Source: a virus. From it: a stretch of DNA of 32,687 bases. Shown one piece after another: positions 11,036-28,772 of this stretch. The stretch covers positions 1 through 32,687 of the IMG/VR virus record IMGVR_UViG_3300035201_000363; one strand, written 5' to 3'. A model generated the notes under the pieces. The model saw nothing but the letters and a program-made list of their open reading frames with translations. It was not told where the DNA came from and did no database searches. Both the position numbers and the translations under genes were made by a program. Every line of letters begins with the position of its first letter. Position 1 is the stretch's first letter.

Positions 11036-11176
11036 ATGGATACGACAACCACTTTTTCCGATCTTACGCTTTATGACTTTATTTTTCAATATTATCAATA
11101 TCCGGTAGATTCGGTAGATGAGACGGGGTTGTTATCGATATATTTTGAAAAAGACGTAGATTTGGATAAATCATGA
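11036..11176 (+). CDS. Small hypothetical ORF coupled to oxygenase C
   Basis: 46 residues (MDTTTTFSDLTLYDFIFQYY...). The stop overlaps the ATG of the next gene (ATGA), supporting translation coupling. It is acidic and aromatic, with no recognisable domain and no clear ribosome site; an AT-rich tract precedes the ATG. It uses CCG, TCG and ACG codons more than its neighbours, which may point to a different origin or to it not being a real gene. Confidence 0.45.
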   Translation: MDTTTTFSDLTLYDFIFQYYQYPVDSVDETGLLSIYFEKDVDLDKS

Positions 11177-11712
11177 CTATAATTTTTTCTAATTATTTCT
11201 ACGATCTTGTAGAACCTTCGAATAAGGAAGAAATATTGAATATTGCAGAAAATCCACCATTACATGAAAATCAGAATTTTGAGTGGTCCAAAGATTGTTC
11301 TGTAAGTTTAGAAAGGTTATCTTATAATGTATTTGGTGAATTAATTTTTCCAACATTATTAGAGTTTCAAAAAAAGTTTAATATAGACCGTCCATTTGCA
11401 GTAGAAGATGTTTGGAAAACAACTTACGAGAAAGGGTCATTTCAAGAAATTCACGATCATTCGGGATGTGAAATATCTTGTGTTATTTTTTTAGATGACC
11501 AGGAAGAGGATGGATCAAGGTTTTTCTTTTATAATAGACATGGTTCTGAATTATCATTAAGTTGGTTGGATTTTTTACCTGAAGACCCTCTTAATCATTA
11601 TGTTGAATATAAGAGAGGTGATGTTTTATTTTTTCCTTCATATATGTTACATGGTGTATCATGTCATCGAATAGATAAGAAAAGGAGAACAATTGCATTG
11701 AATTTTATATGA
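11173..11712 (+). CDS. 2-oxoglutarate/Fe(II) oxygenase-like protein C
   Basis: 179 residues, different from A and B. The core reads VEDVWKTTYEKGSFQEIHDH, then SCVIFLDDQEEDGSRFFFY, and ends in a GDVLFFPSYMLHGVSCHR segment. H94 and H96 (H-x-H where the usual motif is H-x-D) and distal H160 are likely metal ligands, and R171 or R172 is a candidate cosubstrate anchor. This resembles the 'putative 2OG-Fe(II) oxygenase' group seen in cyanophages. The H-x-H could still bind iron or could mean altered chemistry. The substrate is unknown. It starts by ATGA overlap with the 46-residue ORF. A TATAAATA box follows the stop. Confidence 0.7.
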   Translation: MTIIFSNYFYDLVEPSNKEEILNIAENPPLHENQNFEWSKDCSVSLERLSYNVFGELIFPTLLEFQKKFNIDRPFAVEDVWKTTYEKGSFQEIHDHSGCEISCVIFLDDQEEDGSRFFFYNRHGSELSLSWLDFLPEDPLNHYVEYKRGDVLFFPSYMLHGVSCHRIDKKRRTIALNFI

Positions 11713-24062: not shown

Positions 24063-26549
24063 ATGTCAAATAACATTTGGAACGAACCCACAACGACCAC
24101 CGACCTTAATGGTCCTAGGATTGCCATAAAAACTGATGCTTATGGTCATGCACCTGATAGTACTGCTGATAAGACAGTTGTAAATCCATTTGGCGATTCT
24201 AGTGGAAGAACTGGTGGTGTCATAGAGATTACTGGTATTGGAACTGCTACCTGGCCAGTAGGATATGGAACTTATGCGAGTAATACTGGATCTATCGGAT
24301 ATCAGTGGTATAGACTTAATGCAGATGGTTCTACTGATACCTTAGGAATTTCTACAAGGTATGAAGGTCAGGATACAAATACTTTAAGACTTAATTATCT
24401 TGATAATCCTGAGGATAATAATAAGCAGTATTATGTAAGAACTCATGTTATTCCGTCTGCATATGCTCAACCAGAAGGAACAGCAGTTATTGCTGGTACT
24501 GCACGTTCTACTGGATATGCTATTAATGAAGTCGCAGATAGTGGTAGAGTTACTGTAACCGTACTTCCAGAGTTAACTCTTAATACTCAACCAACTGATC
24601 AATCAGCAACGGTTAATAATACAGCAAAATTTTCTACAGAAGCATCAGTAACTGATGATACTCCTATTAGTTACCAGTGGTATGTTGATGGTAATTTGGT
24701 TACGGATGGTGATATAATTTCTACAAATCCAGAAGCAGTAAGAAAAGAAAGATATGCAGTAAATACTTCGAATGGTAGAGATAATAGTATTGTTATTCCT
24801 GATGATGCTACTAATGTAAAAGTAAGAATTGGTGCAGGTGCAGGTGGATATGGTGGTAGTGATACAAATGGTGGTGGTGGTGCTGGTGGATATGGACGAG
24901 TTGGATACTTTAATCTTCCTGATGGTGGAAGAACATTAACGATTAGGGTTGGTTCTAGAGGAAATAATGGCGGTGGTGGTACTAATGCTACAGGTGCTGC
25001 TGGTGGTCATGTAACTGATGAGGGTGATGGTGGACGTGGTGGTGGTGCTCCTGACAGTGGTGCAGGTGGCGGTGGCGCATCAGGTTGTTACATATATGAT
25101 GGTCTTACAGGAACATGGATTCTTGCTGCCGGAGGCGGCGGTGGAGGAGGAGGTGGCTCCTGGAATATGGGTGGAAATTCTGGAGGAAATGGTGGAGATT
25201 GGCAGGCAGTAGCAGGTGATTTGGGAAGAAGTTCTCAATGTACTGGTAAGCAAGGTGCTAGTCGTAGTACAGCATCAATAGAAAGAGGACCAACAAGTAC
25301 TAGTGTTACGTTTAGTGCTCGTATGCATAATGCAGAAGGATGTACATGGGTTTCTAGAGCTCCTGGTAAACCTTATGCTTTTAGTATCGGAAGCAATGGT
25401 GCTGACAAAACAGTAAATATACCATTTGGTCATGAAACAGAGGTTCATATAGTAGAAAGTCAGGGTGGATATGGTCATGTGCAGTGGACGAATAATCATA
25501 CAACAATGAAATATTGGCGACCTAATGTTAGTGTAAATTCAAGAGCCAATATCACAGTTACTGTTAATAATGGAAGATTTGATTCACGAGCATGGTTTGG
25601 ATCAGGTGGTCCAGATTGGTATAAAGATGGTCTTCATTATAATTATAGGTATCCTCATTTTATACCAACAATTGTTTGGGAACATAGTCCTAATACGCAA
25701 ATAAGAACCGACGGCGGTGGCGGCGGCGGTGGCGGCGGTGGCTGGATTGGTGGTAATGGTGGTACTGCGGGACTAGATAAAGTTCCTCCACCTCCTCCTC
25801 CTCCACCCCCACCCCCACCACCACCTCCATCAGGAGAAGATGGTGACGGAGGCGGCGGTGGTGGCGGATGCTTCACCGATGAAACCCGTGTTCTTATGAG
25901 GTCTTCTACTATTGTATTATCTGACGATAATGCTACTGAGGAGACGAAACCAATCTCTGAAGTCCTAGTTGGTGATTATGTCATGAATAAGGACAAGACA
26001 GAAGCGAATAAAGTCGTTTTTGTTGAGAAGTGGCCTGCTTTTGCTAAGGACATGAAGTTATATTCACCAAATAAAGAGGATAAACCATTTGCTACAACAA
26101 ATCATATGTTGTATATTAATGGAGAATGGGTAGCAGCTGATAAGGATTTGTATCCTTGGTTAGAAGATTGTGAACTTGTTTCTGACCCAGTTATTGAACC
26201 AGTAGGTCATAGAGACATCTATAACTTATGGGTAACTGGTGATGGTTCTTATGTTGTCAATGGTTATGGAACTCATTCGATTATGTTTGATGGTGGATTT
26301 ATGAAGAATGCACATGATCAGGGGTTACTTGGTTATGACGATGTTCTGAATCTAATGAGTGAGTTTACGGATGAGAAGTCTAATCTTTTATATGGTTCCT
26401 TCTTGGTCAATAGACTTTTAGGGAAGGTTAATGTTAGACTATTAAATAGATTATGGGTTCATATCTTCTGTGCAGATGACTCTTCTAAACGTAAGAAGTT
26501 GGCACATCTAGTAATGAGAGTCCTACAGAAAGTTAGGAGAATAGTTTAA
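24063..26549 (+). CDS. Gly/Pro-rich adhesin with C-terminal Hint domain
   Basis: 828 residues behind an AGGGAGGG site. Domains: an Ig-like strand (IGYQWYRLNADGS, 78-90); a second Ig-like domain (170-220; ISYQWYVDGNLV); a Gly-rich module (255-400; GCYIYDGLTGTWILAAGGGG); a beta domain (400-545); Gly tract 551-560; fifteen prolines 575-589; Gly tract 596-602; then a Hint domain 603 to about 740. Hint features: C603 (CFTDETRVLM), KPISEVLVGDYVMN (629-642), ATTNH (677-681) and IYNLWVTGDGSYVVNGYGTH (719-738). H738 is followed by Ser, not the Asn of splicing inteins, so N-terminal cleavage or transesterification is possible but full splicing is unlikely. A basic helical tail (741-828) ends the protein. 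The stop overlaps the next ATG (TAATG). It is probably a receptor-binding fibre that processes itself. Confidence 0.8.
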   Translation: MSNNIWNEPTTTTDLNGPRIAIKTDAYGHAPDSTADKTVVNPFGDSSGRTGGVIEITGIGTATWPVGYGTYASNTGSIGYQWYRLNADGSTDTLGISTRYEGQDTNTLRLNYLDNPEDNNKQYYVRTHVIPSAYAQPEGTAVIAGTARSTGYAINEVADSGRVTVTVLPELTLNTQPTDQSATVNNTAKFSTEASVTDDTPISYQWYVDGNLVTDGDIISTNPEAVRKERYAVNTSNGRDNSIVIPDDATNVKVRIGAGAGGYGGSDTNGGGGAGGYGRVGYFNLPDGGRTLTIRVGSRGNNGGGGTNATGAAGGHVTDEGDGGRGGGAPDSGAGGGGASGCYIYDGLTGTWILAAGGGGGGGGGSWNMGGNSGGNGGDWQAVAGDLGRSSQCTGKQGASRSTASIERGPTSTSVTFSARMHNAEGCTWVSRAPGKPYAFSIGSNGADKTVNIPFGHETEVHIVESQGGYGHVQWTNNHTTMKYWRPNVSVNSRANITVTVNNGRFDSRAWFGSGGPDWYKDGLHYNYRYPHFIPTIVWEHSPNTQIRTDGGGGGGGGGGWIGGNGGTAGLDKVPPPPPPPPPPPPPPPSGEDGDGGGGGGGCFTDETRVLMRSSTIVLSDDNATEETKPISEVLVGDYVMNKDKTEANKVVFVEKWPAFAKDMKLYSPNKEDKPFATTNHMLYINGEWVAADKDLYPWLEDCELVSDPVIEPVGHRDIYNLWVTGDGSYVVNGYGTHSIMFDGGFMKNAHDQGLLGYDDVLNLMSEFTDEKSNLLYGSFLVNRLLGKVNVRLLNRLWVHIFCADDSSKRKKLAHLVMRVLQKVRRIV
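25713..25868 (+). repeat. GC-rich poly-Gly / poly-Pro / poly-Gly codon tract
   Basis: Ten GGN codons (25713-25742), fifteen CCN codons (25785-25829) and seven GGN codons (25848-25868) form a sharp GC island in AT-rich DNA. The G-rich and C-rich arms are partly complementary (GGN against CCN), so a hairpin is possible. On the minus strand the proline block reads as runs of GG and GGGGG and could form G-quadruplexes. Codons are mixed rather than one repeated triplet. Confidence 0.8.
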
Positions 26550-26950
26550 TGACTGATTGGGTTCTTCAAAAACATACAAATCAGGAATTAGCGGCATGGC
26601 CTACTAACTTTCCTATTGTGACTAGTACTCTTGACAATTGTATTTTACTTAATGCTATTCTTAAGAATAGTGATCCCTATGATGATGACGAGGTGAGATA
26701 TCTTCGTCAACTTCAAGGAGCTGATAAACAAAGTGTGGGTGAGTATTATCATCGTTCTGAGATTATCATTACAGAAATGCGTAAGCAAGGTGCTGATAAT
26801 GAAGGTGTTTGGAATGAGGTAGACAGATTATACATTGATGCTATAATTGAGAAACTTAAAGTTCGTAATTTTAGTAATTTATTTTCTGATATTCGTAATG
26901 TTTTGGAACATTTAGAAACAAAATACGAGGTAGTTTACGATGGCCGCTAG
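26549..26950 (+). CDS. Small helical protein, function unknown
   Basis: 133 residues, starting at a TAATG overlap with the Hint gene and ending 11 bases inside the next gene. Predicted mostly alpha-helical and charged: LQKHTNQELAAWPTNFPIVT, then NCILLNAILKNSDPYDDDEV, and a C-terminal helix (NFSNLFSDIRNVLEHLETKY). No signal peptide or membrane segment. No family is recognised. Its position between two Gly-rich adhesins suggests an assembly chaperone or cap for one of them; a partner of the Hint protein is another possibility. Confidence 0.65.
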   Translation: MTDWVLQKHTNQELAAWPTNFPIVTSTLDNCILLNAILKNSDPYDDDEVRYLRQLQGADKQSVGEYYHRSEIIITEMRKQGADNEGVWNEVDRLYIDAIIEKLKVRNFSNLFSDIRNVLEHLETKYEVVYDGR

Positions 26951-28193
26951 ATCAGGAGGAGGTGGAGGTGGTACAAGTGCCTATAATAGTGAGGCAATAA
27001 CCTTACAGTCTGGTACTAGTGCTGCTACTGGAGTAGACCCTTATATTGAAATTGAATATACTTCTCCATCAAATACAGGTACTCAGGTTACTACAACTAC
27101 TAAAGTAACAGGGACACAGACTGATACTTTAACAATTGAGAGAGATACTGTTGGAGTTCATACAGTACAGTGTGCTATTTCTCATCCTATTGCTGTTAAT
27201 AATCCAGCATCTTCATCTACCAGAGAGAATTCTCCAATATGGACTGATAAGGTAGAGTTTAACACTATGAGTGCAGTGAACCTTACGAGGTCTAATCTTA
27301 CTTATGAGATTACTCAGGATAATCTTACTTCTGTTTTTTCATCAGCAACGGTAAACCTTTTTGTTCAACCAATGCAATTAACTGGTTGGGCAGAGAATGC
27401 AGAACGTAATATTCAAGTATTTGCTGAAGAAGAGGATTTGCAACTTAAGTTTACTATGGCAGGATCTGCAGGACAGGATTTTAATGGGCAGAAGGGAGGT
27501 GAAGGTGGTGAAACTGTTTTTAAGTATACTTTATTAAAAAATGTTGAATATACTTTAAAACTTGGATGCACTGTAGAACCAACATCATCAATTGGTAGAG
27601 GTGGTGGTGGCGCATATTTCTATGAAGGTGGAAGACTTTTAGTTGCTTGTGGTGGTGGCGGTGCTGCTGGATGGGGTCATCGTGGTGGTAAAGGTGGTGG
27701 AGCTGGAGTTGCTGGTGAAAATGGTGGAGGTTCTAATGGTGGAGATGGTGGTAAGAGAGCAAATGATGGTGAACTTCCTGCCTCTGGCATATTACCTTCT
27801 GGAAAAAAAGGTGGTAAAGTAGAATCTTGTACAACAGGACAATTCTTAAGAGATCAGGGACATGCTCCTTGTGAGTATATTGGACCAAGCGAAAGGTTTA
27901 TGCTTTATAATGGAACTAAAAATATGAATACCCGTCTTATTAAGAGAGGATATAAGGCTGATTATGGTAAGCATGGATATCGTCACAATGGAGGAAATAG
28001 TGCTAGTCAGGTGAATGGAACATGGATTGGTGGTGGTGGTGCTGGTGCTTATGGTGGTGAGTCTACTGGTGACCCGACTTCTGCTGGGGGAGGTGGTAGT
28101 GGATATACAAATGGTAGTGTAACTATTATTAGTACCAAACAAGGTGGAAACACAAATGCTTTGTCTCAATGTTTAATTGAATTAGTAGTATAA
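26940..28193 (+). CDS. Glycine-rich adhesin
   Basis: 417 residues. It opens with a Gly tract (residues 6-11), then a beta domain about 35-145 (PYIEIEYTSPS, TLTIERDTVGVHTVQCAISH). From about 185 it is Gly-rich: GGGGAYFYEGGRLLVACGGG (221-240), GGKGGGAGVAGENGGGSNGG and, near the end, GGGGAGAYGGES and GGGGSGYTNGSV. The 'GGG.YFY.G..LLVACGGGG' module parallels the one in the Hint protein and is like the Gly-rich modules of ALK-type receptors and of phage gp38-type adhesins, where poly-Gly helices bundle into a receptor-binding tip. That structural comparison is from memory. It overlaps the upstream gene by 11 bases; the oxygenase starts four bases downstream. Confidence 0.75.
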   Translation: MAARSGGGGGGTSAYNSEAITLQSGTSAATGVDPYIEIEYTSPSNTGTQVTTTTKVTGTQTDTLTIERDTVGVHTVQCAISHPIAVNNPASSSTRENSPIWTDKVEFNTMSAVNLTRSNLTYEITQDNLTSVFSSATVNLFVQPMQLTGWAENAERNIQVFAEEEDLQLKFTMAGSAGQDFNGQKGGEGGETVFKYTLLKNVEYTLKLGCTVEPTSSIGRGGGGAYFYEGGRLLVACGGGGAAGWGHRGGKGGGAGVAGENGGGSNGGDGGKRANDGELPASGILPSGKKGGKVESCTTGQFLRDQGHAPCEYIGPSERFMLYNGTKNMNTRLIKRGYKADYGKHGYRHNGGNSASQVNGTWIGGGGAGAYGGESTGDPTSAGGGGSGYTNGSVTIISTKQGGNTNALSQCLIELVV

Positions 28194-28196
28194 TGA

Positions 28197-28772
28197 ATGT
28201 ATCATCGTGAATTTATTGAACCTTATTATCTGGAAAAATTAAATAAGGGTGAATTAGGAGAAATACAAAAATATATCTCAAATTTATCAGATAGTGATTA
28301 CAAACATAATGAGTTTGAACACTATGATGGATTTGAGAAAAAGCAATATGATAAGTATCGTTCGTGTGAGATACATTATCCAAAAGATTCTAGTATTTTA
28401 CCTCGTATAGGTAGAAAGTATTTTCAGCATCTAAATAATCAGTTTTATCGGTATGATTTAAAAAATCTCTTTGAATTTCAACTGATTAAATATTATGTTG
28501 GTGGGAATTATAATTGGCATTGTGATTATGGAATTGCTCCAAAGAGAGGAATGTCTAGAAAATTGAGTATGAGTATACAATTGACACCACCAGAAGAGTA
28601 TGAAGGTGGAGAACTTGAAGTGGTTGATTATGCTAATCATACATTGATGATTTCAGGTGATTTGGGTACAGTTATTGTTTTTGATTCCAAATTACCACAT
28701 AAGGTATGGCCAGTTACATGGGGTCAGAGGATTTCATTGGTTGGATGGGCAAATGGACCACGATTGAGATAG
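28197..28772 (+). CDS. PKHD-type 2-oxoglutarate/Fe(II) hydroxylase
   Basis: 191 residues, starting just after the Gly-rich adhesin stop. H108-x-D110 (in YNWHCDYG), H168 (in LPHKVWPV) and R178 (in WGQRISLVGW), ten residues after H168, give the full iron and 2-oxoglutarate set. RKLSMSIQLTPPEEYEGGEL and GTVIVFDSKLPHKVWPVT match PKHD/prolyl-4-hydroxylase-type proteins closely. It belongs to a different branch from genes A, B and C. It is the fourth gene of a coupled unit with the poly-Pro Hint protein and a Gly-rich adhesin, which makes those virion proteins candidate substrates (inference). A TATAAATA box follows the stop. Confidence 0.88.
   Translation: MYHREFIEPYYLEKLNKGELGEIQKYISNLSDSDYKHNEFEHYDGFEKKQYDKYRSCEIHYPKDSSILPRIGRKYFQHLNNQFYRYDLKNLFEFQLIKYYVGGNYNWHCDYGIAPKRGMSRKLSMSIQLTPPEEYEGGELEVVDYANHTLMISGDLGTVIVFDSKLPHKVWPVTWGQRISLVGWANGPRLR

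What the first reader, a model, noticed from the sequence alone, without database searches (positions are those of the whole stretch)
25869..26282. Hint (Hedgehog/intein) domain in a phage fibre protein
C603 at the domain start, the KPI..VLVGDYV strand, the ATTNH block and the IYNLWV...YVVNGYGTHS end match the Hint pattern. The terminal H-N of splicing inteins is replaced by H-S. This predicts N-terminal thioester chemistry (cleavage or transfer to a nucleophile) rather than splicing. The virion could carry a self-released tip, or the Gly/Pro-rich part could become covalently attached to the host surface or another fibre.
Basis: partly seen in the sequence, partly recalled or inferred. Interest (0 to 1): 0.85.

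Follow-up and report, generated by a model that had tools for sequence, protein, structure and literature searches.

The report
Non-splicing Hint–tail module on phage fibres
The end of this phage fibre protein carries a self-processing (intein/Hedgehog-type) domain that has lost the residues for splicing but kept those for cutting itself off, and it is always followed by a conserved helical domain, a combination shared by dozens of uncultured phages on different tail-tip proteins and laid out like the Hedgehog self-modifying domain of animals.

Summary
The Hint domain is real. The window protein alone gives almost no database signal, but 46 distinct relatives make it certain: Pfam Hint in 42 of 47, a confident model (pLDDT 91.6), and Foldseek hits to BIL, Vint, intein and Hedgehog structures. 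Cys603, Thr678/His681 and Glu655 are invariant in 47/47; the C-terminal Asn is Ser/Thr in 47/47. So the N-terminal thioester machinery is kept and the splicing end is lost.

The Hint is followed in every untruncated relative by a conserved, cationic, ~89-residue helical domain (window 26280-26546) with no PDB match. Hint+tail is one mobile C-terminal module on several unrelated structural proteins: a split Gly-rich fibre, gp5-like baseplate hubs and DUF4815 proteins. Where the same polypeptide also has HN-type Hints, only the tail-bearing one lacks HN. This is the layout of a Hedgehog 'Hog' domain (Hint + adduct-recognition region). No close member was found in 50,697 named phage records.

Most likely: a non-splicing autoprocessing module forming a Gly602-Cys603 thioester, resolved by hydrolysis or acyl transfer under control of the tail. 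Cleavage and nucleophile are untested.

The parts
24063..26549 (+). 828-aa fibre/adhesin gene: N part matches phrog_24848 positions 2-385, then Gly-rich domain, polyPro, polyGly, Hint, helical tail
25785..25868 (+). Low-complexity linker: Pro15 (575-589), SGEDGD, Gly7 (596-602), ending at the Gly602|Cys603 junction
25869..26279 (+). Hint domain, residues 603-739
25869..25871 (+). Cys603, predicted thioester nucleophile (Cys in 47/47 relatives)
26025..26027 (+). Glu655, invariant acidic residue in the long strand; candidate functional counterpart of the Hedgehog general base (alignment inconclusive)
26094..26105 (+). Block B T-x-x-H: Thr678 and His681, invariant 47/47
26274..26279 (+). His738-Ser739 in place of the intein His-Asn (family: T31/H10/E3/S2/P1, then S44/T3, never Asn)
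26280..26546 (+). C-terminal helical tail domain, residues 740-828, cationic, invariant Gly778, found only directly after this Hint type
26549..26950 (+). 133-aa ORF overlapping the fibre stop; homologues in L013-L015 and SynMITS9220M01_029, absent in L006, L007, L017
26940..28193 (+). 417-aa second half of the split fibre (phrog_24848 positions 390-793); single ORF with the first half in phages Bellamy and S-SM2

Best explanation
The C-terminal 226 residues are a two-part, non-splicing autoprocessing module: a Hint domain plus a dedicated helical partner domain. Cys603 attacks the Gly602 carbonyl (N-to-S acyl shift helped by Thr678/His681) to give a thioester at the end of the Gly-rich adhesin. 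With no C-terminal His-Asn and no +1 nucleophile, splicing cannot follow, so the thioester is resolved by an outside nucleophile (water or a molecule positioned by the tail). The adhesin is freed from the Hint-tail, with a free or modified C-terminus. Shown here: the fold, the conserved residue pattern, the obligate tail, and spread over several structural proteins. Inferred: that the shift occurs, that cleavage follows, and what the nucleophile is. My split within this statement is about even between plain hydrolysis (module acts during folding/assembly and is shed) and acyl transfer to a chosen acceptor.
For: Cys1, T-x-x-H and Glu invariant in 47/47 with sequences down to 32% identity, although the search patterns came from other motifs. 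Terminal Asn 0/47. Hint fold by structure: BIL2, Vint, inteins, Hedgehog. The tail occurs only directly behind this Hint: 64 ORFs with one Hint plus tail, and 4 array ORFs in which upstream Hints keep HN+Lys and have no tail while the last lacks HN and has it. The module ends the ORF in all untruncated members. Gly at -1 in 28/47. Hosts are tail-tip/baseplate-type proteins: fibre, gp5-like hub, DUF4815.
Against: No biochemical or proteomic data. Two fibre relatives (L006, L007) have Pro at -1, which from general intein knowledge slows the acyl shift. The residue before Cys is variable (G, D, V, S, P, R, E, F, H). A tail could have a purely structural role, and the Hint could be folded but inactive in the virion.
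Confidence: 0.65

Rival explanations
1. Hog-like adduct ligase: the tail works like the Hedgehog sterol/adduct recognition region. It binds a small nucleophile, probably a membrane lipid (e.g. [quoted passage not shown]
For: Same domain order and size (Hint then a 50-100 aa helical region with no known homologues; PMC7242414). GCF junction as in Hedgehog (one search shows the CF; Gly-Cys junction from PMC5874633). The end of the Hint, VNG-YGT-T/H-S, aligns in register with Hedgehog VNS-VAA-S-C (motif J), in the low-confidence part of an hhalign run; motif J Cys is Ser/Thr in several known Hog domains (PMC2362128). Invariant Glu in the strand that holds the Hedgehog Asp46. Tail cationic in 44/47 with an often amphipathic last helix.
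Against: Profile alignment to Hedgehog is confident only over the first 31 columns, and a forced alignment puts Glu one residue off Asp46. The tail is five short helices, not the SRR helix-loop-helix, and has no structural match. Closest solved structures are BIL/Vint, not Hedgehog. No adduct known.
Confidence: 0.25
2. Self-removing folding/assembly cassette: the tail is an intramolecular chaperone or assembly tag for the fibre, hub and DUF4815 proteins, and the Hint only cuts it off by hydrolysis, comparable in role to the autocleaved S74 chaperone of phage tail spikes.
For: Always C-terminal, on several unrelated virion proteins; linkers Gly/Pro/Arg-rich; transferred between host proteins (tree).
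Against: Does not explain why a thioester chemistry is kept rather than an ordinary self-protease; one small tail serving several unrelated folds is unusual for a chaperone; some hosts are small proteins with a hydrophobic segment before the Cys (L028, L029, L039).
Confidence: 0.3
3. B-type BIL domain: the module belongs with bacterial intein-like domains that generate protein variants by N- and/or C-terminal cleavage in variable surface proteins.
For: B-type BILs keep intein motifs except the C-terminal one and cleave at the N-terminus (PMC7765530); best structural matches are BIL and Vint domains; located in variable low-complexity regions of surface proteins.
Against: The sources read here describe no obligate helical C-terminal partner domain for BILs; no B-type BIL profile was available for a direct test.
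Confidence: 0.3
4. Trans-ligation device that rejoins the two halves of the split fibre (828-aa and 417-aa proteins).
For: The fibre is one ORF in Bellamy and S-SM2 and two ORFs here, with the Hint exactly at the split.
Against: The second half starts MAARSGGGG / MSNAGRGGGG with no C-intein and no conserved Cys/Ser/Thr; SynMITS9220M01 has the same split with no Hint; most family members are not at split genes.
Confidence: 0.03
5. Inactive Hint retained as a structural or binding domain.
For: HN lost in all; no activity data.
Against: Cys1, T-x-x-H and Glu invariant in 47/47, the pattern expected for kept N-terminal chemistry.
Confidence: 0.12

Closest known systems
Hedgehog Hog domain (Hint + SRR/ARR)
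   Same: N-terminal Cys with Phe next and usually Gly before; T-x-x-H; no terminal His-Asn; a 50-100 aa helical region of unknown homology directly after the Hint; module at the protein C-terminus
   Different: Phage virion proteins; tail predicted as five short helices; closer in structure search to BIL/Vint; position of the general base not established; no adduct known
Bacterial intein-like (BIL) domains, type B
   Same: Intein motifs kept except the C-terminal one; in variable surface proteins; BIL2 (6y75/6tmm) is the best solved-structure match
   Different: Obligate helical C-terminal domain; always at the ORF end; several unrelated phage tail/baseplate hosts
Vint domain (8r2c, PF14623)
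   Same: Hint fold, second-best structural group; PF14623 matched by 37 of 47 members at E<=0.1
   Different: Partner domain and host proteins differ
Splicing inteins (PI-SceI, gp41-1)
   Same: Hint fold and N-terminal blocks A and B
   Different: No HN, no +1 nucleophile, no C-extein: cannot splice
S74-type self-cleaving intramolecular chaperones of phage tail spikes (from own knowledge)
   Same: C-terminal self-removing module on trimeric tail proteins, if cleavage is confirmed
   Different: Unrelated fold and chemistry

Membership tests
Hint superfamily | Horseshoe all-beta Hint fold | tested here: met
   Model pLDDT 91.6; Foldseek prob 1.00 to BIL2, Vint, gp41-1, 1at0
Hint superfamily | N-terminal Cys/Ser nucleophile and block B T-x-x-H | tested here: met
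   Invariant in 47/47
Splicing intein | C-terminal (His-)Asn and +1 Cys/Ser/Thr with a C-extein | tested here: not met
   Terminal residue S44/T3, +1 is I43/L3/V1; the ORF ends with the tail
A-type BIL | Conserved C-terminal His-Asn | tested here: not met
   0/47 have Asn; upstream Hints of arrays in L010-L012 and L047 do have HNK
B-type BIL | Intein motifs present except the C-terminal one | tested here: met
   definition from PMC7765530
B-type BIL | Groups with B-type BILs in sequence or tree | not tested
Hedgehog Hog domain | Adduct-recognition-like region directly C-terminal to the Hint | tested here: inconclusive
   A helical domain is always there but no homology to SRR shown
Hedgehog Hog domain | Motif J (SCYA-type) in place of intein HN | tested here: inconclusive
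   Ser/Thr in the register of the motif J Cys in a forced, low-confidence alignment; rest of the motif differs (PMC2362128)
Hedgehog Hog domain | Active-site Asp/His general base (D46 in 1at0 numbering) | tested here: inconclusive
   Invariant Glu in the equivalent strand; forced hhalign is one residue off and of low confidence
Hedgehog Hog domain | Covalent adduct on the released N part | not testable with these tools
   Needs mass spectrometry

The most novel reading that the evidence does not exclude
A phage-encoded Hog-like ligase: tail-tip proteins of many uncultured phages are cleaved at Gly-Cys and covalently joined, through a Hint thioester guided by a new helical recognition domain, to a lipid or other small nucleophile (or to another surface molecule). 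As far as I know this would be the first Hedgehog-type protein modification in viruses of bacteria.
Probability: 0.22. Interest if true: 0.92.

Novelty: new variant of a known kind. Interest (0 to 1): 0.62.

Why it matters
Non-splicing Hint domains with a dedicated C-terminal partner domain are best known from Hedgehog, where the partner brings cholesterol to the thioester. Finding the same layout, conserved across dozens of uncultured phages on fibre, hub and other tail-end proteins, gives a direct test of whether phages modify or shed the ends of their adhesins by thioester chemistry. It also gives a candidate prokaryotic counterpart of the Hog architecture and a possible new protein-ligation tool.

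Tried and rejected
Splicing intein: rejected (no Asn, no +1 nucleophile, no C-extein). Trans-splicing of the split fibre: rejected (no C-intein, no nucleophile at the start of the second half; the same split occurs without a Hint in SynMITS9220M01). Tail alone in the viral collection: the pattern scan failed because no stretch was conserved enough; replaced by a profile scan of all fetched loci, which found no tail without the Hint (these loci were all fetched through the Hint, so a tail-only protein elsewhere is not excluded). Tail structure versus PDB: no match. Named-phage searches: no Hint+tail member in 50,697 records with P0002, L001, L018, L024, L057, L059 (only ~25-30% matches over part of the Hint, to Vibrio phage proteins annotated as helicase or P-loop NTPase, probable inteins, and other weak hits). 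Forced alignment to Hedgehog to fix the position of the general base: inconclusive. Literature: no description of this module in the open-access library; absence there is not proof.

Full report
OBSERVATION. The finding lies in the 828-aa ORF at 24063-26549 of a 32,687-bp IMG/VR virus record. Its neighbours match cyanophage-type tail fibre and baseplate families, and relatives of the fibre itself are Synechococcus phages of the Kyanoviridae.

RELATIVES. Three successive scans of viral contigs gave 67 loci; 47 sequences, window included, are non-redundant and complete enough to align. The Pfam Hint module (PF01079) is matched by 42 of 47, Hom_end_hint by 38, Vint by 37 (E<=0.1). A profile of the family finds solved BIL and PI-SceI chains at E 5e-5 to 7e-5 and Hedgehog chains weakly. 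AlphaFold with this alignment gives pLDDT 91.6 and pTM 0.88: beta strands to residue 140 of the construct, then five helices. Foldseek against the PDB: BIL2 of Tetrahymena E 7.6e-8, Vint 3e-6, gp41-1 intein 1.7e-5, Clostridium BIL 8e-5, Hedgehog 1at0 2.7e-3, all probability 1.00. TM-scores normalised to the query are 0.3-0.5 because the matches cover mainly the Hint. The Hint domain is therefore confirmed.

ACTIVE-SITE PATTERN. In 47/47: Cys1, Phe2, Asn649, Val651, Glu655, Thr678, His681, Trp699, Tyr720-Asn721-Leu722-Trp723, Asp727, Asn733, Thr737 and Gly778 of the tail. The penultimate position is T31, H10, E3, S2, P1; the terminal position S44, T3, never Asn; the next residue I43, L3, V1. 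The residue before Cys is Gly in 28/47. The search patterns were from PFATTNH and YNLW, so Cys1 invariance is not built in by the search. Conclusion: the N-terminal acyl-shift machinery is under strong selection, and the C-terminal cleavage/splicing machinery is gone.

THE TAIL. Another 89 residues follow (26280-26546), conserved in the family (I-x-x-D-G-G ... G-x-x-x-x-N-K; invariant Gly) and ending the ORF. The tail alone models less well (pLDDT 77.7) and has no PDB match. A profile scan of all 897 kb fetched found the tail only directly behind this Hint: 64 single ORFs and 4 array ORFs. In the arrays (L010-L012, L047) up to three upstream Hints end in HN-K and have no tail; only the last Hint lacks HN and has the tail. 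Loss of HN and presence of the tail thus go together even within one polypeptide. The Hint is acidic (mean net charge -5.3) and the tail basic (+5.4; positive in 44/47), often with an amphipathic last helix. That would suit membrane binding but equally a charge-paired contact with the Hint.

HOST PROTEINS. The module ends a Gly-rich fibre (window, L006, L007, L013-L017), gp5-like baseplate hub proteins (L018, L021, L044), DUF4815 proteins (about 22) and several small or unknown proteins. In the tree the fibre group is one clade (100/100), whereas gp5-hub carriers need at least two label changes and DUF4815 at least three: the module has moved between genes. It is also seen in two bacterial MAG contigs, one clearly phage-like (L073) and one in a Burkholderiales contig (L074). 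It was not found in 50,697 named phage records at the sensitivity used.

GENE CONTEXT. The fibre gene is split. The first half of the window protein and the downstream 417-aa protein match the two halves of one PHROG family (positions 2-385 and 390-793), which is a single ORF in phages Bellamy and S-SM2. In SynMITS9220M01 the same split carries a different C-terminal piece without a Hint. So the split site takes exchangeable C-terminal cassettes. The second half begins without a nucleophile or C-intein, which argues against trans-splicing.

MECHANISM. Shown: fold, residue pattern, obligate tail, module mobility. Inferred: thioester at Gly602-Cys603 and its resolution by water or by an acceptor positioned by the tail. 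The nearest working model is the Hedgehog Hog domain, in which the region after the Hint recruits cholesterol to the thioester (PMC7242414, PMC7906309, PMC2362128). Resemblances: domain order, tail length, GCF junction, Ser/Thr in the register of motif J. Not established: the general base (invariant Glu, alignment to Hedgehog Asp46 inconclusive), any homology of tail and SRR, any adduct. By features tested, the Hint itself also fits the B-type BIL definition (all motifs but the last; PMC7765530). I therefore describe it as a Hint-superfamily member that may work like a Hog domain, not as a Hog domain. The rival explanations overlap: B-type BIL is a question of kinship, the Hog-like and shed-cassette readings are two ways of resolving the same thioester.

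VERDICT. Observation confirmed; interpretation partly supported and enlarged. The finding is a new variant of a known kind: a non-splicing Hint plus a new obligate helical partner, spread over tail-end proteins of uncultured phages. Cleavage and its product are the decisive unknowns.

Noticed in passing
24063-28193: Fibre gene split into two ORFs (24063-26549 and 26940-28193) that are one ORF in phages Bellamy and S-SM2; the split site carries different C-terminal cassettes in different phages.
   Followed up: partly
26549-26950: 133-aa ORF between the fibre halves, overlapping the upstream stop; homologues at the same place in L013-L015 and SynMITS9220M01_029, no family match.
   Followed up: partly
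25251-25712 approx. (residues ~397-550): Extra stretch of about 150 residues inside the Gly-rich domain, absent from all five fibre relatives aligned; possibly a receptor-binding loop.
   Followed up: no
L010, L011, L012 (1238-1797 aa of the ORF) and L047: Tandem arrays of Hint domains: upstream ones end in HN followed by Lys (A-type BIL-like), the last one is the HN-less Hint plus tail.
   Followed up: partly
L003:10318-12168 (SynMITS9220M01_028): Same fibre with a long polyPro, a polyArg and a different Cys-containing C-terminal domain (GSIICKNLATLGYF...) in the place of Hint plus tail; L013 and L016 have polyArg before GGGC/GGDC.
   Followed up: no
L018, L021, L044: gp5-like baseplate hub N-domains fused to Hint plus tail at the end instead of the usual lysozyme/needle parts.
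   Followed up: partly
L074:1-1026: Hint plus diverged tail after a very long polyPro tract in a Burkholderiales MAG contig, outside an obvious phage context.
   Followed up: partly
11173-11712 and 28197-28772: Two 2OG-Fe(II) oxygenase-type genes among the fibre genes.
   Followed up: no
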